Origin: a virus
Virus record (IMG/VR): IMGVR_UViG_3300023284_001318
Span: 1-64,000 of that record
Reading direction: 5' to 3' (one strand)
Length of the DNA stretch: 64,000 bases
The notes under the pieces are model-generated. The model was not told where the DNA came from. It made no database searches and saw only the letters and a program-made list of their open reading frames with translations. Shown in pieces: positions 1 to 21,620 of the stretch (its first letter is position 1; every line of letters begins with the position of its first letter). The translations under genes were made by a program, and so were the position numbers.

Positions 1-53
1 GTGTTGATGATGTGAAAGAAATGTTGGATTTCTATAGACTTCGGCCTTTGTAA
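1..53 (+). CDS. C-terminal end of an upstream gene (partial)
   Basis: Frame 3 is open from the window edge to a TAA at 51-53 and encodes the end VDDVKEMLDFYRLRPL. It lies 23 bases upstream of the primase-helicase start on the same strand, so it is probably the tail of the preceding gene in the same operon. Too little is visible to assign a function. Confidence 0.45.
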   Translation, partial: VDDVKEMLDFYRLRPL

Positions 54-76
54 AGCTACTGACTGTTGAGGCGGGG

Positions 77-2575
77 ATGGCGGACGATAAGCGGGACTCG
101 GCTCCATATGCGGATATCTATAGCCACTTTATTGACATGATTGAGCTATTACCAGACCACAGGCAACACCTAAAGACCAAACGTGGTTTTACCGATGAGA
201 CCATTGACCGCTGCCGCTTTCGATCATGTGGCCCCCACCTTGAGCCAGCCTTGTTAGCTGTTAAAGACAAGTTTGACCTTCAGCGCACCAAAGAAGCGGG
301 CCTGGTGGACGACCTTGGACCTACCAAGAAGCTATTAAGTGAAAATATTCTTATTCCATATTTTAACTCTTCTGGCCAAGTTACCTATATCCGCCCCCAC
401 AAAGATGCCCTACATGGTCTCAAGATGCCCGTCTACTGCCCAGGGTCCTTGCAGTCTTTCACTATCCTAGCAGAGTCTGAATTCAAGGCTGCTGCTTGTT
501 TTCAGTGGGGCTTCTCCGCCATAGGTATTGCTGGGGTATCGGCTGCGAGTGGTAAGAATTACTCCTTGCTTACTGACACCCTCAAATCCCACGATGTTAC
601 CTCAGTTTGCGTGGTGTTTGATAATGAGGTCAAGGATAACCCAGCCTATCCGCTCTATAAGCCCCATTATTGGGATCGATGGGACACCCAGCTCTATGCC
701 TACCTAATGGCGACGAAACTCAGAGAAGATGGATATGAGACCACTATTGGGATCCTACCTGTTGCCTGGATGCAGAATGGCAAGATAGACCTGGACGGCG
801 CTCTTGCCATGGGTAAATCTCGTCAGGACATGGCTATCGAGGTACTACGGGAGCGATACGAGCCGACTAAATACCTTAAGACGTTGCCGCAAGATGCTGC
901 AGGGCTCATTCAGAGGCGATTAATCAAGTCACAAATTGGGACAACTATTAATGATTTTGGATCACGCTATTGGGTGCAACGGCAAAAGAAAGATGGAACA
1001 TTTATCAATACGCCGATAACGAATTTCACAATGGCAATCGAAAATAATATTTTTGATGCTAAGAAGGTTTGTACCCGTGAGATAAATCTTGCCAATAACG
1101 TAGGAGGGGGGATCTCCAGGGCATTGTTTAAAGGGGAGGATCTGAATCACCCTGTCAATTTTAAGAAAAGATGCTTTCAATTGGGCAATTATCAGTTCAA
1201 AGGAACGGCCCATGATTTAGAGTCGATAATCGAGTACGAGACAGCTAGGGAAATAGGCAAGGCTGTATATCGACCCGACCATTGCGGGTGGGTCAAAGAA
1301 GCTGGCTTGTACTTATTTCGCAACGGGGGGCTGGATCCACAGGGTAATCGTCTTGAATGTGACTCAGAGGGGGTAGTCTGGCGTGGGCTGACGGGCTGGC
1401 AGGCTGTCCAATTTCATCAGGGGGATAGTGAGGGTAGTGGGGATATTCCGAGCTTATCTAAGGTGAATATGGACCCATGCGGGCTGATTGATCTGATGGA
1501 GGAGAATTACTCGGGTAATATGGAGATTCGCCTAGCGTGTGCGTGGGTAATTGCCTCCTTTTTTGCCCATCATTTGTCGCAAATCTTTAGTAATACATTT
1601 CCTCTGTTATTTATTACCGGCCAACTTCAATCGGGCAAGACGACTCTCTGTGAGTGGCTTTCCGCGATGGCCGGACTCACTACTCGGGGCTACTCGTTCT
1701 CGGTCGGTACTGAGGTTGGCCTGGAGCGTGGGTCCTTCTATTATTCTTCCCTACCCTTCTGGCTAGATGAATATCGTAACTCAGATAAGAATAAGGGCAA
1801 GGAGTCTTTCTTCCGATCCGCCTATGACCGACAAATGGGGCTCAAGGGGGTTAGGCAGGACTTTGGGGTCCGGGGCGGGTCTATCCGGGCAGCTATCATG
1901 GTATCTGGGCAAGACACCCCGACCGACCTTGCTCTGCAAACGCGGTTTATCACAATTAGACTAAAGAAAAAGCGTAGCGGGGTGAATTTTGATAAGTTGC
2001 AGGCCATGAGGGCTGAGATGAGTGGGATATTGCCGGGGCTAGTTAATAAGTTTTATCGAAAATATCCCGATATAGTCATTGCGGTCAAGAAAATGCGGGG
2101 GCATTTAAGTGGGCAAGGTGTGGATGATAGGACCTCGGTGACTTATGCGATTGTGATGGGCCTATACGATCAAATAGTCAGAGAGAATCACCGGGATTTT
2201 TTTGATTTTGTCGTTGGACACGGAAAAGCTAGTTATGAGGAGAAAGAAGTAGATAAACCAACTCACCAGTTTTTACTCGGACTCCAAGAATTGAAAGATA
2301 AGATTTATCACACTTCAGTCAGGGCTGTCTCGGGGTGCCTGGCGATTTATTTTCAGGGGGCGTATGGCGCGTATCAAACACTGAAAAGGCAACAGGGGCA
2401 GGAGGTGACCTGGAAGCGGACTACGTTGCTAGAGGAGTTTGCAGAGCAAGACTGTTTTGTTGAAAAAGCCCGGAGCGTTAGAGTGGGTGGCCATAATGTC
2501 AGATGCTTGATACTTGATCCACATCAGGATGAGCTGGTGATGGATATTTATGATGCGGCGAAGGAGGAAGAGTGA
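77..2575 (+). CDS. TOPRIM primase / helicase fusion protein
   Basis: An 832-residue replication protein. The N-terminal third has a TOPRIM-like region: an acidic strand (ILAESEFKAAA, about residue 130) and a second one, VVFDNE, near residue 180. The C-terminal half is a P-loop ATPase with Walker A ITGQLQSGKTTL at about 515 and Walker B FWLDEYRN at about 561. This matches phage and plasmid primase-helicases that unwind DNA and lay primers at the fork. I see no zinc-binding domain at the N-terminus. The start ATG follows GAGGCGG. The last codons (KEEE) encode the AAGGAGGA Shine-Dalgarno of the next gene and are duplicated 199 bp downstream. Confidence is good for primase/helicase and lower for the exact family. 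Confidence 0.8.
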   Translation: MADDKRDSAPYADIYSHFIDMIELLPDHRQHLKTKRGFTDETIDRCRFRSCGPHLEPALLAVKDKFDLQRTKEAGLVDDLGPTKKLLSENILIPYFNSSGQVTYIRPHKDALHGLKMPVYCPGSLQSFTILAESEFKAAACFQWGFSAIGIAGVSAASGKNYSLLTDTLKSHDVTSVCVVFDNEVKDNPAYPLYKPHYWDRWDTQLYAYLMATKLREDGYETTIGILPVAWMQNGKIDLDGALAMGKSRQDMAIEVLRERYEPTKYLKTLPQDAAGLIQRRLIKSQIGTTINDFGSRYWVQRQKKDGTFINTPITNFTMAIENNIFDAKKVCTREINLANNVGGGISRALFKGEDLNHPVNFKKRCFQLGNYQFKGTAHDLESIIEYETAREIGKAVYRPDHCGWVKEAGLYLFRNGGLDPQGNRLECDSEGVVWRGLTGWQAVQFHQGDSEGSGDIPSLSKVNMDPCGLIDLMEENYSGNMEIRLACAWVIASFFAHHLSQIFSNTFPLLFITGQLQSGKTTLCEWLSAMAGLTTRGYSFSVGTEVGLERGSFYYSSLPFWLDEYRNSDKNKGKESFFRSAYDRQMGLKGVRQDFGVRGGSIRAAIMVSGQDTPTDLALQTRFITIRLKKKRSGVNFDKLQAMRAEMSGILPGLVNKFYRKYPDIVIAVKKMRGHLSGQGVDDRTSVTYAIVMGLYDQIVRENHRDFFDFVVGHGKASYEEKEVDKPTHQFLLGLQELKDKIYHTSVRAVSGCLAIYFQGAYGAYQTLKRQQGQEVTWKRTTLLEEFAEQDCFVEKARSVRVGGHNVRCLILDPHQDELVMDIYDAAKEEE

Positions 2576-9246: not shown

Positions 9247-9521
9247 TTCCCCTTCCTCGCCTTCTTGCTCACTTTATCAATCTCGATTACCTTTCCGCTT
9301 TCCCCGGTCACGGGGAGCGGAACGATCAAATGGAGGCGGTTGTCGATCACCATGAACTTATTAACCGTCGCTCCGAATTGGAGGCGATAGATTCTTGGCT
9401 CAGTGGCCACGGACGCTATCGCCGGCCACCGCTGTAGGATCTCTCCAGCTATCCACCAACATACCGCACCAATAATAATACTAATTAGGATAGAAGCGAC
9501 TACAATTTTAAGTTTGCTCAT
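9243..9521 (-). CDS. Membrane-anchored hypothetical protein
   Basis: 92 residues. Residues 5-27 (KIVVASILISIIIGAVCWWI) form a transmembrane anchor or signal; the remainder is a soluble domain with a basic tail. The function is unknown. Confidence 0.55.
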   Translation of the reverse strand: MSKLKIVVASILISIIIGAVCWWIAGEILQRWPAIASVATEPRIYRLQFGATVNKFMVIDNRLHLIVPLPVTGESGKVIEIDKVSKKARKGK

Positions 9522-9522
9522 T

Positions 9523-9696
9523 TTACCCCCTTCCTGTACCCTTGCCCCTTGCCTTATCGTCGATCTTGGGGCAAGTATGACCCTTAATCCGCGATGTTAT
9601 TCGTGAAACATACAGAGAGGCAATTTCCCTTAAGATCTTTTGTTCATCTGACCTGTTCTGATTATTTTCCTCTTCAACCATCTTCTGTTTATTCAT
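9523..9696 (-). CDS. 57-residue basic protein in a repeat-flanked cassette
   Basis: Minus-strand ATG at 9694-9696, stop TAA at 9523-9525. Sequence starts MNKQKMVEEENNQNRSDEQK and ends in a Lys/Gly/Arg tail. The tail is encoded by the downstream copy of a 34-bp repeat whose other copy lies just upstream of the gene. Confidence 0.5.
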   Translation of the reverse strand: MNKQKMVEEENNQNRSDEQKILREIASLYVSRITSRIKGHTCPKIDDKARGKGTGRG

Positions 9697-9738
9697 TTTT
9701 CCTTCCCCTTCCTATACCCTTGCCCCTTGCCTTATCGT
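9527..9738 (-). repeat. 34-bp direct repeat flanking the 57-residue gene
   Basis: 9527-9560 and 9705-9738 differ at a single position. Read on the minus strand, each copy ends in GGAAGGGG, which lies before a start codon. The first copy in transcription order follows the DUF2786-like gene; the second codes for the end of the inserted gene and precedes the gene at 9521. Confidence 0.9.
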
Positions 9739-9766
9739 TAAGCTTGAGCGATCCTCGTGAGCCGTT

Positions 9767-10519
9767 TTATGTCAATTTGCCCTGTGATCCGCCGATCCTG
9801 CCGGTTGACCTGTTTAGTGACACGTCCGCGCCAAACCGGCTTCCTCGGTTGTAACCATTGGACCCCGAGGTCCTGGTGCTCCCTCCGATGCCGCCAGCAG
9901 ACCCCTTGCAAGTTGCCTTGATAAAGGCGTCTACCTCCTGCTTGGCAGTCTGAATAATGACCAGGGCTCGTTTGTCCCCGTTTAGCTCGGCCATCTCCTC
10001 TGCCTTCTTGTGGGGAGCCTGAAGGCGATTGGCTAGACTGGCAATGGCCCCATCAATAAACCCCTTCCTGAAGCCGTCGATATTCTCCCCCGCCCTGCCG
10101 GCCCTGGAATACTGCCGGTTCATTTCCGCCGTGATAGTCCTTACGAGGTATCCATATAGGTAGGCACAGACTTGCCGGTCTGAGGTCCGTCTGACAAACC
10201 AGATATTGTTTGATCCGCTACTAACAAGGGTCCGACAGAAATTAGCCCTTGCTACATATCCCGCAAGGAACTCTTGCCACGGTATGCGGCGGTGAGTCCG
10301 CTTGATACCTAGCTCCCCGAGGTCAATCTTCTCTTTGTCTATCGGCTCCTTGACTTCAAACTCGTAAAACTCAACGTCGGACATCTCAAGTTTGTGGCGG
10401 AGAAGCAACTCGGAAATCTTCTCCGCAAAGGCCTCTGCCTCTTGCATTGATCCGATAGCAGCGGCGCTTTCCTGATGGGATATTAGCTTTTTGAGTTTGT
10501 CCATTATGGGATCAGTCAT
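9767..10519 (-). CDS. DUF2786-like phage protein, first gene of the minus operon
   Basis: 250 residues. The N-terminal helical part (MDKLKKLISHQESAAAIGSM, EAEAFAEKISELLLRHKLEM) matches DUF2786, a domain common in phages and plasmids. A middle part includes YLYGYLVRTITAEMN and FRKGFIDGAIASLANRL. The C-terminus is Gly/Ser-rich. Biochemical function is unknown. AAGGAGAAA precedes the ATG, and a consensus promoter lies about 30-50 bp upstream. Confidence 0.75.
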   Translation of the reverse strand: MTDPIMDKLKKLISHQESAAAIGSMQEAEAFAEKISELLLRHKLEMSDVEFYEFEVKEPIDKEKIDLGELGIKRTHRRIPWQEFLAGYVARANFCRTLVSSGSNNIWFVRRTSDRQVCAYLYGYLVRTITAEMNRQYSRAGRAGENIDGFRKGFIDGAIASLANRLQAPHKKAEEMAELNGDKRALVIIQTAKQEVDAFIKATCKGSAGGIGGSTRTSGSNGYNRGSRFGADVSLNRSTGRIGGSQGKLT

Positions 10520-13463: not shown

Positions 13464-15395
13464 ATGACCTGGACAATAATCCAGGGTGACGCGAGGAGGA
13501 TACCGCTCGGGGATGAGACGGTGCAGTGTGTGGTGACCTCGCCCCCTTTCTGGGGACTCCGCGACTACGGACTCCCGCCGTCCGTCTGGGGCGGTGAGGA
13601 CCATGAGCATGAGTGGGGAGAATGGCAAGAAAGTCACGACGAAAGAGAAGCCAAACAACATGGCAAATCTCGCACTACGAACAGATTTTATAACGACGAA
13701 TCACGGAGATTTGATGGCAACCACCAGAAACACACTGCTGGCTCTTTCTGCCCCTGCGGTGCCTGGCTCGGGGTGCTCGGGCTGGAGCCGACGATTGAGA
13801 TGTATGTGGAACATATGGTCCAGATTTTCCGTGAGGTGAGAAGGGTGTTGCGGAAGGATGGGACGGTTTGGATGAATTTGGGGGATAGTTACTGGAACGG
13901 CGGCGGTGAAAAACGTGATGGTGGGCACGGTTTTGTTGATGGTGGCAAGATAAAGCTAGAAAAGGCAAAAGGAAGTGTTCTGCAGCGGGAATCATATTCT
14001 CCCGGCCTCAAACCCAAAGACCTCTGCGGTATCCCCTGGCGCGTAGCCCTGGCCCTGCAACAGCCTTACCATTGTGGACCTATTAAACATGAGAAAGATC
14101 GTGCATGGCTCGCGGCCTTCCTTGATGGTGAAGGGACGATTGGAATTAAGCGCGATGCTGGAAGGAATCATGGGAGTCAAAACAAATGTCAACCTGGCTA
14201 TTCAGTCTTTGTTTCGGCTGGGAATCAGGACCGAGCTTTACTCGATTACTGTGTATCTATTACGGGTTACGGAAAGGTCAACCTGAAGGATCGCCCTTCT
14301 ATCGATAAGCGGGGCATTAGAAGTCGAAGGGACTATTTCGGGTGGTGGATTAGCGCAACCCAGGCTGTTGCTGTACTTCGAGATGTCTACCCTTTTTTGA
14401 TTGCTAAGCGGCGCCAGGCGATACTTGCTTATACTTTGGACATATCGAATAAAGCTGGTCGATCAATGCGCGGCAATAAGGCCCTACCTTCAAGTGAACA
14501 GGAAAAAAGAGAACGACTGAAAGTTCTCTGTAATGCCTGCAACCAGCGCCAGCCTGTTGATGTGCCGACATGGTCAGTCGAGCCGCCGTCTAACTATGAG
14601 CCAGGATGGTATCTCAGGAGCGACATAATTTGGAGCAAGCCCAACCCCATGCCCGAGAGCGTGACTGATAGGCCGACACGTAGCCATGAGTATGTGTTTT
14701 TGCTGACTAAGGCGGCGAGTTATTACTACGATGCCAATGCGGTGAAAGAGGAGCAAGCAGAAAGTATGCTTCGACGTACAGATGAAAGGCCGCCAGATAA
14801 GAAATATAACTTTATTCCAAGCGGTGGACAGCGGATTTTATCCAATGGCCGCAACCTCCGCTCCGTCTGGAATATTGCAACCCAGCCCTTTCCCCTCGCA
14901 CATTTCGCCACCTTCCCCCAGGCCCTAGTCGAGCCCTGCATAAAGGCCGGGACATCCGAGAAAGGCTGCTGTGCTGAGTGCGGGGGGCCGTGGGAAAGAT
15001 TAACTGAAAAGAAGTCTATTACACCAAAGGATTATGAAGGCAAATGGTCAGAAACGGATCCGCAATCGTCTGGGAGAAGGATGCTGGCTAATGTCCGGGC
15101 CCGCAGAGAGTCGGGCGAGGACCACGACAATCCATTTCCGGCGGCCACAACCCTCGGTTGGCAACCCACCTGCAAATGCCCAGGACTTGATGGAGACCAT
15201 CCTGGCAGTGATGTTGCTGATCCTGATAACTGGCCTACTCAACCCTGCCTGGTCCTCGACCCCTTCTCCGGCAGCGGCACCGTCGGCGTGGTCTGCCTCA
15301 AGTTAGGCCGCTCATTCGTGGGCATAGAGCTCAAGAAGGAATACACAACGATGGCAAACAAGAGAGTTTTTAATAGCGGGAGTTTATTGGCATGA
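13464..15395 (+). CDS. DNA methyltransferase (beta class) with inserted LAGLIDADG domain
   Basis: 643 residues. The N-terminus carries the catalytic motif TSPPFWGLRDYG (about residue 25) and the C-terminus the AdoMet-binding motif VLDPFSGSGTVG (about 597), the order of beta-class N4-cytosine/N6-adenine methyltransferases. A target loop with CAECGGPW...CKCPG zinc ligands lies near 500-580. Residues about 200-380 interrupt the usual GIPWRVALALQ ... GWYLRSDIIWSKPNPMPES core and contain AWLAAFLDGEGTIGI, a LAGLIDADG homing-endonuclease motif. No intein splice motifs (N-terminal Cys/Ser block, C-terminal His-Asn) are seen at the borders. It may protect phage DNA from host restriction. Confidence 0.85.
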   Translation: MTWTIIQGDARRIPLGDETVQCVVTSPPFWGLRDYGLPPSVWGGEDHEHEWGEWQESHDEREAKQHGKSRTTNRFYNDESRRFDGNHQKHTAGSFCPCGAWLGVLGLEPTIEMYVEHMVQIFREVRRVLRKDGTVWMNLGDSYWNGGGEKRDGGHGFVDGGKIKLEKAKGSVLQRESYSPGLKPKDLCGIPWRVALALQQPYHCGPIKHEKDRAWLAAFLDGEGTIGIKRDAGRNHGSQNKCQPGYSVFVSAGNQDRALLDYCVSITGYGKVNLKDRPSIDKRGIRSRRDYFGWWISATQAVAVLRDVYPFLIAKRRQAILAYTLDISNKAGRSMRGNKALPSSEQEKRERLKVLCNACNQRQPVDVPTWSVEPPSNYEPGWYLRSDIIWSKPNPMPESVTDRPTRSHEYVFLLTKAASYYYDANAVKEEQAESMLRRTDERPPDKKYNFIPSGGQRILSNGRNLRSVWNIATQPFPLAHFATFPQALVEPCIKAGTSEKGCCAECGGPWERLTEKKSITPKDYEGKWSETDPQSSGRRMLANVRARRESGEDHDNPFPAATTLGWQPTCKCPGLDGDHPGSDVADPDNWPTQPCLVLDPFSGSGTVGVVCLKLGRSFVGIELKKEYTTMANKRVFNSGSLLA

Positions 15396-17136: not shown

Positions 17137-17439
17137 ATGAAAAAAATGAAAGATTGGAAAGTAAGGGTTGAACCTTATTTCGGAGGGGGGGGGTTTGAGA
17201 TTTACACTTGCCCTGATTGTGGCGAAGAGACGCAGTATCCAATGATTCATGTGTTAAAAACCCATTGCCTCCCGAGCACCCCCAAGCAAGTCGTCATGAC
17301 CGTAGACCCATTTAATTCAGGCAAAGGGTTCGCAGACGACTGCGCCCACGACTACAAGCGACTGCAGAAGAACGGTGACAGGATTTTTTACGCTTGTGAG
17401 CATTGTGGGGCTACGAAGGTGGGGAGAGAGGAGGAGTGA
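17137..17439 (+). CDS. Zinc-ribbon protein
   Basis: 100 residues with two Cys pairs (CPDCG and CEHCG) and His residues in between (HVLKTHC). Its stop codon TGA (17437-17439) lies inside the first unit of the 35-bp array. Confidence 0.6.
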   Translation: MKKMKDWKVRVEPYFGGGGFEIYTCPDCGEETQYPMIHVLKTHCLPSTPKQVVMTVDPFNSGKGFADDCAHDYKRLQKNGDRIFYACEHCGATKVGREEE

Positions 17440-17823
17440 GCCGCGCAGCCAGATTTTGCAAAGAGGTGGAGCGAGCCACGATAGCGGATTTGACAACTGC
17501 TGTGAGCGAGCCAAAAGGACGGATTATTCATCACATTTGAGCGAGCCATAGTCGCCGATTTAACACATTGTGGGAGCGAGCCAAAGAACATGATTGCTCA
17601 GAAGAATAGAGCGAGCCAGAGGCACAGGTTGTTCACCCCCATAGAGCGAGCCATGATATACGATTTTACACTATGTCAGAGCGAGCCATATATCAGGATT
17701 TTACAAGGTTGCGGAGCGAGCCCAGATGAGCGATTTTGCACACGAGGGGAGCGAGCCAAAATCATTGATCTAACACCATCAAAGAGCGAGCCATTATTAA
17801 CGATTTTACAGTACAATCGAGCG
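17434..17823. repeat. 35-bp-period array of two alternating conserved blocks
   Basis: Eleven complete units start at 17434, 17469, 17504, 17539, 17574, 17609, 17644, 17679, 17714, 17749 and 17784, each exactly 35 bp; a truncated twelfth starts at 17819. Each unit is GAGCGAGCCA, 8 variable bases, GATTTTACA, 8 variable bases. In the second block G1, T3, C8 and A9 are invariant in all eleven units; A2 and T4 hold in ten. The two 8-base spacers show no conservation. Because 35 is not a multiple of 3, the frame shifts every unit, so it is not coding. The array fills the 400-bp gap between two zinc-ribbon genes. Confidence 0.97.
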
Positions 17824-17838
17824 TAAACGAGGTAAATA

Positions 17839-18108
17839 GTGGGCACCATTAAAAATCGCCGCCGCAAAACCAAGTGGGATCGGACTGAGACCGAGATGCA
17901 GGGGGCTCGGGACCAGACAGTCCACTTGCTAGAAAGAATCTCGGGTGTTGAGAATGCTATCGTGCGACTGCATGGGGTGAGGTGTTCATGTGGGGGTAAG
18001 GAGGTAGTGGATGTAATAGGGACGAGATTTGATGGTGATTATAGATTTGGCGAAACTCGTTGTTTCTACTGCCATAGATTGCTTAAAGCGTATGGGGTAA
18101 CGGTATGA
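17839..18108 (+). CDS. Zinc-ribbon protein downstream of the array
   Basis: 89 residues, GTG start 12 bases after the truncated last repeat, with GAGGT upstream. Helical basic N-terminus (KNRRRKTKWDRTETEMQGAR) and Cys pairs CSCGG and CFYCH. A DNA-binding partner of the array is conceivable but unsupported. Confidence 0.55.
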   Translation: MGTIKNRRRKTKWDRTETEMQGARDQTVHLLERISGVENAIVRLHGVRCSCGGKEVVDVIGTRFDGDYRFGETRCFYCHRLLKAYGVTV

Positions 18109-19468: not shown

Positions 19469-19800
19469 AAAAGTGGATACTCATCGTTTTTCTCTGGTAT
19501 ATCTTCGTTGACAACACGCCCTGGATTCAAGACCCAGAGAAGAAAATTGTTTGGATATTGAAGCCGGGATGGTCTACGGAGGGTGATTGTTGGGATGTGA
19601 AAACTCGATTGTTTGAAAGATACGCCTACGACCCCGTTATAGTGAATAGGAAGTATATGTGTATTGATATGGATTATGAAAACCCGCCACCGCTTGAGTT
19701 GTCATCAGAAGAAATAGTTGGTCGATTACGATCGCAACTAGGAGACCTGATCAAACAATTAAGAATGATGCCCCAAAATGCCCTAACGACGCCAAAATGA
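19465..19800 (+). CDS. Exported small protein
   Basis: 111 residues from GTG 19465. KKWILIVFLWYIFVDN is a signal peptide or anchor; two Cys (GDCWD, MCID) could form a disulphide outside the cytoplasm. It overlaps the membrane protein at 19797 by 4 bp and may work with it. Confidence 0.55.
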   Translation: MKKWILIVFLWYIFVDNTPWIQDPEKKIVWILKPGWSTEGDCWDVKTRLFERYAYDPVIVNRKYMCIDMDYENPPPLELSSEEIVGRLRSQLGDLIKQLRMMPQNALTTPK

Positions 19801-20954
19801 TTCTTATTGCCCTTGCCGCGCTAACTCCCTTTATTTTTATCCCCGGTCTTCAAGATCCGTCTGGATTGCCAAAGACTCTTTATTTATCGTTGCTGGCTAT
19901 TGTAGCAGTGATGTTGCTGTTAAAAAAAGAAGTACCGCTTCTTGATATGTCTCGACCTATTATGCCCTGGTCTCTAGTTGTTTTTATTGGAGCGATATTC
20001 TTGTCTGCTTTTTGGTCCATCAATCCTCACCTTTTTCTTTCTCAACTATCTCTGGACTTATCGGGCATTGCGCTGTTTATTTATGTAGCGAATTGTCTGA
20101 AGTCTAAGGACTTGCCCATGGCTGTAATGATTCTCTGTGTAATGGGTTTTTTGATAGCGTTGAGTGTTTTTATAGGAATACAGATAGATCCGCGAGTATC
20201 GGGGCCTGGTTGGAGTGTGGTGAATGAGAAGTTCTTTACTTTGTTGTTGGGGGGGTTAGTGCCGTTGGCGATTGGTTTTATTCGATTTTCTCGTGTTGAT
20301 ATACATCTTTTTGTCGGTAGTTTTTCGTTAGTTTCTATGATCGCTTACGTTATTTTATTTTCTTCCCTTGCAACGTATTTTGCAATAGGAATTGTTGCAA
20401 TGGTCTGGGTTTTTCGGTTTGTATGGAATTTAAAAGAGGGAGACATTACGGTGTTTAGGGCGTCATTGGGTCTTGTTGTATTTCTGTCGATTATAGTTAC
20501 GAGTATCTATTTCAACCCCAGGATTAATCTAAATAATATGCAAGAACGCATTTCATGGTGGCAAGAAAGTCAGTCTATGCTTGTTGAAAGCAACTTCCTG
20601 GGTGTCGGTCGAGGACAATGGCAAACACGATCCCACAAAAGATCCCCTATTCATGGAGATGCACGGCATGGTTGGCGACCTGAACATGCTCATAATGATA
20701 TTATGGAGATTGTAGGAGAGTTGGGTCCTATAGGACTGGGATCACTCGGGGCCTTTTTCTTTATGACATTATTACTTCGCACTGGTCGAATGGGATTCTG
20801 GCTGAAATTGTCCCTGGGGATATTTTTGCTTGAAGGATTATTCTGGTCTTTACTTCATTATGCGATTTTTGTGCCGTTTATCTGGATGATAGCTGGAATG
20901 ATTTGGGTGGATAGGAAGGAAGAAGAAGAGGTCTATAACGGGGCGGGGTATTGA
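19797..20954 (+). CDS. O-antigen ligase / polymerase-like membrane protein
   Basis: 385 residues with about ten transmembrane helices and a periplasmic loop near residues 265-305: NFLGVGRGQWQTRSHKRSPI, then HAHNDIMEIVGELGPIGLG. The GxGxG...HxHNDxxExxxExGxxG pattern is the signature of the O-antigen ligase (WaaL)/Wzy superfamily. In a phage such a protein could remodel host surface polysaccharide and block superinfection; this is inference. Coupled by 4-bp overlaps to its neighbours. Confidence 0.8.
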   Translation: MILIALAALTPFIFIPGLQDPSGLPKTLYLSLLAIVAVMLLLKKEVPLLDMSRPIMPWSLVVFIGAIFLSAFWSINPHLFLSQLSLDLSGIALFIYVANCLKSKDLPMAVMILCVMGFLIALSVFIGIQIDPRVSGPGWSVVNEKFFTLLLGGLVPLAIGFIRFSRVDIHLFVGSFSLVSMIAYVILFSSLATYFAIGIVAMVWVFRFVWNLKEGDITVFRASLGLVVFLSIIVTSIYFNPRINLNNMQERISWWQESQSMLVESNFLGVGRGQWQTRSHKRSPIHGDARHGWRPEHAHNDIMEIVGELGPIGLGSLGAFFFMTLLLRTGRMGFWLKLSLGIFLLEGLFWSLLHYAIFVPFIWMIAGMIWVDRKEEEEVYNGAGY

Positions 20955-21235
20955 TGGAAAAGGATAGATTGGCTACCCCAAAAGATATTGAAGAAGTCGT
21001 GAGGAAAACTTTTGATCGAATTACGTGGGATTCGAGTGTTTGTATGGGACAACCCCGTATTAAAAATACTCGGATCACTACGAATTTTATTTATAGACTT
21101 AGCATTGATCGTTGGTCCATCGTTGCTATTAAAGAGTCGTACCCAGATATAACTACCGAAGATATAGCACAGGCTACTGTGTTTGAGCATTGCGATTTAC
21201 CAAGAAGTTTGAAAGATTGGGGGCTTCTTGGATAA
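20954..21235 (+). CDS. DUF433-like protein
   Basis: 94 residues. CMGQPRIKNTRITTNFIYRL and SYPDITTEDIAQATVF match DUF433 (GxPxIKGTRI ... YPxLTxEDI), a small HTH family often acting as antitoxin. No cognate toxin is visible next to it. It sits between the O-antigen-ligase-like and TPR genes. Confidence 0.7.
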   Translation: MEKDRLATPKDIEEVVRKTFDRITWDSSVCMGQPRIKNTRITTNFIYRLSIDRWSIVAIKESYPDITTEDIAQATVFEHCDLPRSLKDWGLLG

Positions 21236-21620
21236 ACTACTATTCATCTTTTTAGCTGTACTCATCTTCCTCACCCTCTTCAACACCCTGCGTCTGTGGG
21301 GCAACCACCTATTTTCAAAAGGCCGTGTCGTAGAAGCCTTAGTACTTGAACCCTATAATTATCTCTATCATTTTGCCGCTGGGACCGCCTTGCTGCAATC
21401 CAAACAAAGCGGTCTGGCTGTGAAGCATTTAGAGAGGGCTGTCAGCCTCAATCCTAGTTATACAGATGCCTTAAACAACCTTGCCGTTGCCCTAATTATC
21501 GAGAAAAGATACGATGAGGCTCGCAAGGTATTAGCCGCTTTAAAACGCAAGGATGCAAAGGATGGGTATGGTAGGCAGAATTTAGAGGTGTTGGAGAAGA
21601 TGATGAGAAAGGAGCGATAG
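21228..21620 (+). CDS. Membrane-anchored TPR protein
   Basis: 130 residues from TTG 21228, overlapping the gene before. One N-terminal transmembrane helix (LLFIFLAVLIFLTLF), then TPR repeats (HFAAGTALLQSKQSGLAVKH, LNNLAVALIIEKRYDEARKV). O-antigen-ligase-like proteins are frequently followed by, or fused to, TPR domains, so the two probably work together at the inner membrane. Confidence 0.7.
   Translation: MDKLLFIFLAVLIFLTLFNTLRLWGNHLFSKGRVVEALVLEPYNYLYHFAAGTALLQSKQSGLAVKHLERAVSLNPSYTDALNNLAVALIIEKRYDEARKVLAALKRKDAKDGYGRQNLEVLEKMMRKER

What the first reader, a model, noticed from the sequence alone, without database searches (positions are those of the whole stretch)
17434..17823. 35-bp array with two alternating conserved blocks and random 8-nt spacers
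Eleven units have a period of exactly 35 bp with no indels. GAGCGAGCCA and GATTTTACA alternate, 18 and 17 bp apart, while the 16 intervening bases per unit are unrelated between units. Ordinary tandem duplication would make spacers similar, so selection must hold only the two blocks and the spacing. That suggests a protein array with a bipartite site, or an origin or centromere; spacer diversity with fixed length also recalls acquired-spacer arrays, though the blocks are too short for CRISPR and no Cas genes are present.
Basis: seen in the sequence. Interest (0 to 1): 0.92.

Follow-up and report, generated by a model that had tools for sequence, protein, structure and literature searches.

The report
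Phage guide-RNA array lacking its protein
A complete phage genome carries an array of tiny paired guide sequences of the recently discovered TIGR type, but not the Tas protein that normally uses them, so the phage probably borrows that protein from another element in the cell.

Summary
Eleven units of exactly 35 bp (GAGCGAGCCA-N8-GATTTTACA-N8) lie at 17434-17818 in a non-coding gap, followed by a truncated GAGCG at 17819-17823. The spacers are as unrelated as chance predicts. [quoted passage not shown] Faure et al. 2025, PMC12045711). Many other viral contigs have the same kind of array, nearly always touching a gene for a TasA-like Nop protein whose family matches solved TasR (E 3e-26) and TasH (2e-15). 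The published Salicola phage CGphi29 array has an edge repeat one base different. The unusual point: this record has an exact 144-bp terminal repeat, so it is complete, yet it encodes no Tas protein (hhalign controls 99.9%, best own ORF 2.7%). An array-first survey found five more Tas-less arrays among roughly 115 contigs, all on contigs not shown complete. The repeats show no decay. A test of 1,657 spacer pairs found no self- or relative-targeting above controls. Best reading: an orphan TIGR array whose tigRNAs act in trans with another element's Tas. Array identity is about 0.95; the in-trans role (about 0.55) is inferred.

The parts
17434..17823 (+). TIGR dual-repeat array: 11 tigRNA units of 35 bp plus a truncated terminal edge repeat
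   Evidence: same architecture next to Tas genes in other phages
17434..17443 (+). first edge repeat (GAGTGAGCCG, two differences from consensus); its TGA at 17437-17439 is the stop codon of the upstream ORF
17444..17451 (+). spacer A of unit 1; further A spacers every 35 bp to 17794-17801
17452..17460 (+). loop repeat of unit 1 (GATTTTGCA); further loop repeats every 35 bp to 17802-17810
17461..17468 (+). spacer B of unit 1; further B spacers every 35 bp to 17811-17818
17819..17823 (+). terminal truncated edge repeat GAGCG, as described for published TIGR arrays; no terminator-like site follows
17137..17439 (+). upstream 100-aa ORF with zinc-ribbon-like cysteines, probably co-transcribed with the array; not Tas-like
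17839..18108 (+). downstream 89-aa ORF with paired cysteines; not Tas-like

Best explanation
The array is a TIGR (tandem interspaced guide RNA) array. It is probably transcribed on the + strand from the operon that runs through it. If a Tas protein is present, the transcript would be cut in the edge repeats into about 35-nt tigRNAs (half edge, 8-nt spacer A, loop repeat, 8-nt spacer B, half edge). A Nop-domain Tas dimer would hold each tigRNA by the GA and CA boxes of its repeats, and spacers A and B would pair with opposite strands of one 16-18-bp DNA target. Shown here: the array architecture, its identity with arrays beside Tas genes, and the absence of a detectable Tas gene from this complete genome. 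Inferred: transcription, processing, targeting, and that the Tas protein is supplied in trans by a prophage, co-infecting phage or host (my estimate for the in-trans part alone is 0.55). The confidence given is for identity and guide mechanism.
For: Array identity: unit order, 8-10-nt repeats, 8-nt spacers and truncated terminal edge match the published description. The published Salicola phage CGphi29 array is AAGCGAGCCA-N8-AAGACAACCA-N8, an edge one base different from this one (its Tas gene). In nearly all of 73 parsed arrays the repeats begin GA and end CA, with 8-nt spacers. In the Tas-positive records examined the array lies 0-867 nt from the gene and on the same strand. The partner family matches solved TasR 9mty (3e-26), TasH 21kl (2e-15) and IS621. 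Edge positions 3-8 and 4-7 covary (G-C, T-A, A-T; C-G, T-A), comparable to the covarying edge pair in the TasR structure. Absence of Tas: exact 144-bp terminal repeat; no hit by family profile, Nop or Transposase_20; hhalign controls 99.9% against at most 2.7% for 101 ORFs. Not decaying: 12 of 17 repeat deviations fall in the three middle loop bases (Fisher p 1e-7); edge agreement 97% against a Tas-positive median of 94%.
Against: No RNA, processing or binding data. No terminator-like or convincing promoter-like site at the array. No host is known, so a Tas donor cannot be named. Spacers gave no recognisable target in this genome, its 7.4-kb relative or 2.07 Mb of related contigs. A very recent loss of tas would look the same as use in trans. 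The placement of arrays beside tas was measured on a set partly collected by searching for Tas.
Confidence: 0.88

Rival explanations
1. Relic: the phage recently lost its tas gene and the array is now unused.
For: In Tas-positive phages the gene adjoins the array; orphans are a small minority.
Against: No decay signature: no indels, boxes intact, edges at 97%, variation limited to the middle of the loop. Five other Tas-less arrays are known. No tas remnant in six frames.
Confidence: 0.2
2. The phage encodes its own partner: a Tas or unrelated tigRNA-binding protein too divergent to detect by sequence.
For: Many proteins in this genome have no family match.
Against: The array repeats are nearly identical to those served by readily detected TasA proteins, and hhalign detects even TasH and the Microcystis phage protein at 99.9%. 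Flanking proteins are small and cysteine-rich.
Confidence: 0.15
3. DNA-level element: iterons of a replication origin, a partition site or a protein-binding array.
For: Non-coding, regular period, conserved blocks; the GAGC repeats superficially resemble Rep-binding elements (own knowledge).
Against: Other phages have the same array beside tas, on the same strand. The edge blocks covary as RNA pairs. The 35-bp period places successive blocks 1.6-1.7 helical turns apart, off-phase. A separate repeat array beside the replication region is a better origin candidate.
Confidence: 0.03
4. A CRISPR-like array with acquired spacers of 24-26 nt.
For: Variable spacers of fixed length.
Against: Two alternating repeats of 9-10 nt and 8-nt spacers do not fit CRISPR. 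No adaptation protein is known for TIGR. No protospacer excess was found.
Confidence: 0.01

Closest known systems
TIGR-TasH locus of Salicola phage CGphi29 (SpTIGR; PMC12045711; HQ634153)
   Same: Edge repeat differs by 1 of 10 bases; 8-nt A and B spacers; alternating edge and loop repeats; tailed phage.
   Different: CGphi29 has 36-nt units, loop AAGACAACCA, its tas gene next to the array, and a hairpin with a T run after it. This phage has 35-nt units, a 9-nt loop, no tas and no terminator-like site.
TasA-type TIGR loci of IMG/VR contigs L009 and L008
   Same: Identical edge GAGCGAGCCA, 35-nt period, loops GATTGAACA and GATTGAGCA, 8-nt spacers unrelated to the window's.
   Different: Both carry a TasA-like gene between or beside the arrays; the window phage does not.
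Tas-less arrays in contigs G052/L106, G068/L246, G076/L278, L257 and L264
   Same: TIGR array inside the contig with no Tas gene detected in the record.
   Different: Those contigs are not shown to be complete; this record is. Their loop repeats differ.
Virus-borne mini-CRISPR arrays and RNA anti-CRISPRs (PMC11656645, PMC10651486)
   Same: Works-like comparison: guide units carried by a virus without the effector, using or blocking an effector encoded elsewhere.
   Different: Different RNA and effector families; not a member. Mini-arrays mostly target related viruses; no such targeting was found here.

Membership tests
TIGR dual-repeat array | Two distinct alternating 8-12-nt repeats separated by short spacers of constant length | tested here: met
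   10-nt and 9-nt repeats, 8-nt spacers, 11 units; published arrays mostly have 9-nt spacers, SpTIGR has 8
TIGR dual-repeat array | Spacers vary between units and between loci | tested here: met
   Identity at chance level; different spacers in L008 and L009
TIGR dual-repeat array | Box C/D-like motifs shared by edge and loop repeats | tested here: met
   Both repeats start GA (one loop reads GG) and end CA (edges of units 1 and 9 end CG and CC); the same GA...CA boxes are found across the clade
TIGR dual-repeat array | Array ends with a truncated edge repeat and a rho-independent terminator | tested here: inconclusive
   Truncated edge GAGCG present; no terminator-like site on the + strand
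TIGR dual-repeat array | Transcribed and processed to about 36-nt tigRNAs | not testable with these tools
   No RNA data
TIGR-Tas system (array plus Tas protein) | Nop-domain Tas gene at the locus | tested here: not met
   No Tas in the complete record; so an orphan TIGR array is claimed, not a complete TIGR-Tas system
TIGR-Tas system (array plus Tas protein) | Tandem-spacer DNA targeting | not testable with these tools
   Needs biochemistry; no target recognised
CRISPR array | Single 25-36-nt repeat with spacers of similar size and cas genes | tested here: not met
   Repeats are 9-10 nt and alternate; cas genes were not searched for exhaustively, none seen
Replication iterons | Bound by an initiator protein at an origin | not testable with these tools
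   Considered less likely because of the association with tas elsewhere

The most novel reading that the evidence does not exclude
Orphan TIGR arrays are a recurrent phage strategy: guide-only cassettes that load onto a Tas protein made by a host, prophage or rival phage and redirect or jam it, a TIGR counterpart of virus-borne mini-CRISPR arrays and RNA anti-CRISPRs.
Probability: 0.4. Interest if true: 0.85.

Novelty: new variant of a known kind. Interest (0 to 1): 0.62.

Why it matters
TIGR-Tas was described in 2025 by searching outward from the proteins, which cannot find arrays that lack one. An array in a complete genome without its protein separates guide supply from effector supply. It gives a simple test of whether tigRNAs work in trans between elements, which bears on the open question of what phage TIGR systems are for.

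Tried and rejected
Self- and cross-targeting: 1,657 spacer pairs from TIGR arrays were tested against 2.07 Mb of TIGR phage contigs, using the geometry implied by the published C-5 rule (spacer B next to the reverse complement of A, gap 0-2). There were 4 exact hits, against 4-6 in control geometries and shuffled partners; self-hits also did not exceed controls. The one near match in the window (unit 11, 1 mismatch) lies inside the array and is the loop repeat resembling the complement of spacer B. The close relative L097 does not reach the array locus and has no target within 3 mismatches. A search for the exact edge plus GATTTTACA found no other IMG/VR contig. A search for relatives by the primase found none. 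The one genome-collection hit was a Chloroflexi MAG contig (L098) with its own tas. A comparison of orphan contigs G000 and G052 found no shared protein that could replace Tas. No Rfam match. Several automatically parsed arrays were unreliable and left out of the counts.

Full report
What is there. The window shows 11 units of exactly 35 bp at 17434-17818, each an edge repeat GAGCGAGCCA, 8 variable bases, a loop repeat GATTTTACA (GATT and CA nearly fixed, middle bases variable) and 8 more variable bases, then a truncated edge GAGCG at 17819-17823. With up to 3 mismatches the bipartite 27-mer occurs 11 times, all here, against 0.01 expected. Spacers are as different from each other as chance predicts. 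The array fills the gap between a 100-aa ORF, whose stop codon lies inside the first repeat, and an 89-aa ORF starting at 17839.

What it is. A pattern search of IMG/VR found the same array in two other phage contigs with entirely different spacers, flanking a gene with an IS110-like helix-hairpin-helix. [quoted passage not shown] Homologue searches brought 86 further Tas loci. Arrays parsed from 73 loci have 34-36-nt units, 8-nt spacers and, in nearly all, repeats that start GA and end CA (the parser assumed 8-nt spacers and preferred GA...CA ends, but the same layout can be read directly). The Tas alignment matches solved TasR (9mty, 3e-26), TasH (21kl, 2e-15), IS621 and ISCro4, and Pfam Transposase_20 for three of the five members scanned, with a sub-threshold match for a fourth. 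Among isolated phages it finds Salicola phage CGphi29, the published TasH phage, and Microcystis phage Mvi-JY20. The CGphi29 array reads AAGCGAGCCA-N8-AAGACAACCA-N8, so its edge differs from the window's by one base.

Pairing. In edge-type repeats across the clade, positions 3-8 are mostly G-C, T-A or A-T and positions 4-7 mainly C-G or T-A (loop-type repeats were not fully separated in that count). This resembles the covarying edge pair that joins the two ends of a processed tigRNA in the TasR structure. The window's first edge has T-G at positions 4-7, a wobble.

The missing protein. The record that holds the window is 65,083 bp with an exact 144-bp direct terminal repeat, so it is taken as a complete, circularly assembled genome of 64,939 bp. 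No Tas gene is in it: direct search, six-frame profile search, a wider 148-member profile, Pfam Nop and Transposase_20 and hhalign, in which the Salicola and Microcystis proteins score 99.9% and the best of 101 own ORFs 2.7%. In the Tas-positive loci examined the array lies 0-867 nt from tas and on the same strand (two loci there have a mis-assigned array strand).

How common this is. Contigs without a detected tas whose array lies more than 2.4 kb from both ends are G052/L106 (34 kb), G068/L246 (89 kb), G076/L278 (50 kb), L257 (13 kb) and L264 (11 kb). None of these five has a terminal repeat, so only the window's record is shown complete. Orphan arrays therefore seem to be a few per cent; this is an estimate from a partly truncated sample.

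Is it still in use? Repeat deviations in the window concentrate in the three middle loop bases (12 of 33 cells against 5 of 176 elsewhere, p 1e-7), the part that made no clear sequence-specific contacts in TasR. Edge agreement is 97%, against a median of 94% in 20 Tas-positive arrays; loop agreement is 86% against 91%. There are no indels. This argues against long decay but cannot exclude recent loss.

Targets. The published C-5 rule and 8-nt 3' overhang imply that one target strand reads spacer B followed by the reverse complement of spacer A, with gap 0-2. That geometry is my deduction. With it, 1,657 spacer pairs gave 4 exact hits in 2.07 Mb of related contigs, against 4-6 in controls, and no excess of self-hits. 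So TIGR spacers of this clade do not, at up to one mismatch, detectably target their own genomes or the sampled relatives. The true targets remain unknown.

Interpretation. The array is a TIGR array (about 0.95). As the genome is complete and lacks Tas, the simplest functional reading is that its tigRNAs are used by a Tas protein from another element, as virus-borne mini-CRISPR arrays use host effectors or as RNA anti-CRISPRs block them; this is analogy and inference (about 0.55). Loss of tas (0.2) and an undetected own partner (0.15) remain. In the held literature the main TIGR paper and a review do not mention orphan arrays, and few other papers mention TIGR at all.

Novelty and limits. The array is a new member of a known kind; the Tas-less state in a complete genome is a new variant.

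Noticed in passing
G000 record 64237-64710 (just beyond the window; L096 1238-1711): A second, unrelated non-coding array: 12 copies of a TGAAGTCGAG-like block, 38-48 bp apart, separated by in-register pentamers NNNTG (54 of 74 end in TG; other registers 0-9; p about 5e-46). It lies just before a VRR-NUC-like ORF near the replication genes; not found in 350 other loci. Possible origin or an unknown repeat system.
   Followed up: partly
record ends, window 1-144 and G000 64940-65083: Exact 144-bp direct terminal repeat: the record is a complete genome of 64,939 bp.
   Followed up: yes
19797-20954 and 21228-21620: An O-antigen-ligase/polymerase-like membrane protein followed by a TPR-like protein, an unusual pair in a phage (judged from sequence only).
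   Followed up: no
13464-15395: A DNA methyltransferase with an HNH-endonuclease family match at residues 209-361 between its methyltransferase parts, which may be an intein or homing insert.
   Followed up: no
L264 2700-5110 and L278 locus 9441-10209: TIGR arrays broken into sub-arrays with small ORFs between them, on contigs without a detected tas.
   Followed up: partly
L246 2965-3250 (reverse strand): Four-unit Tas-less TIGR array whose units 1 and 3 share spacer A (TTAATGTT) but not spacer B, flanked on both sides by similar AT-rich sequence with TATAAT-like motifs; hints at how units are exchanged.
   Followed up: no
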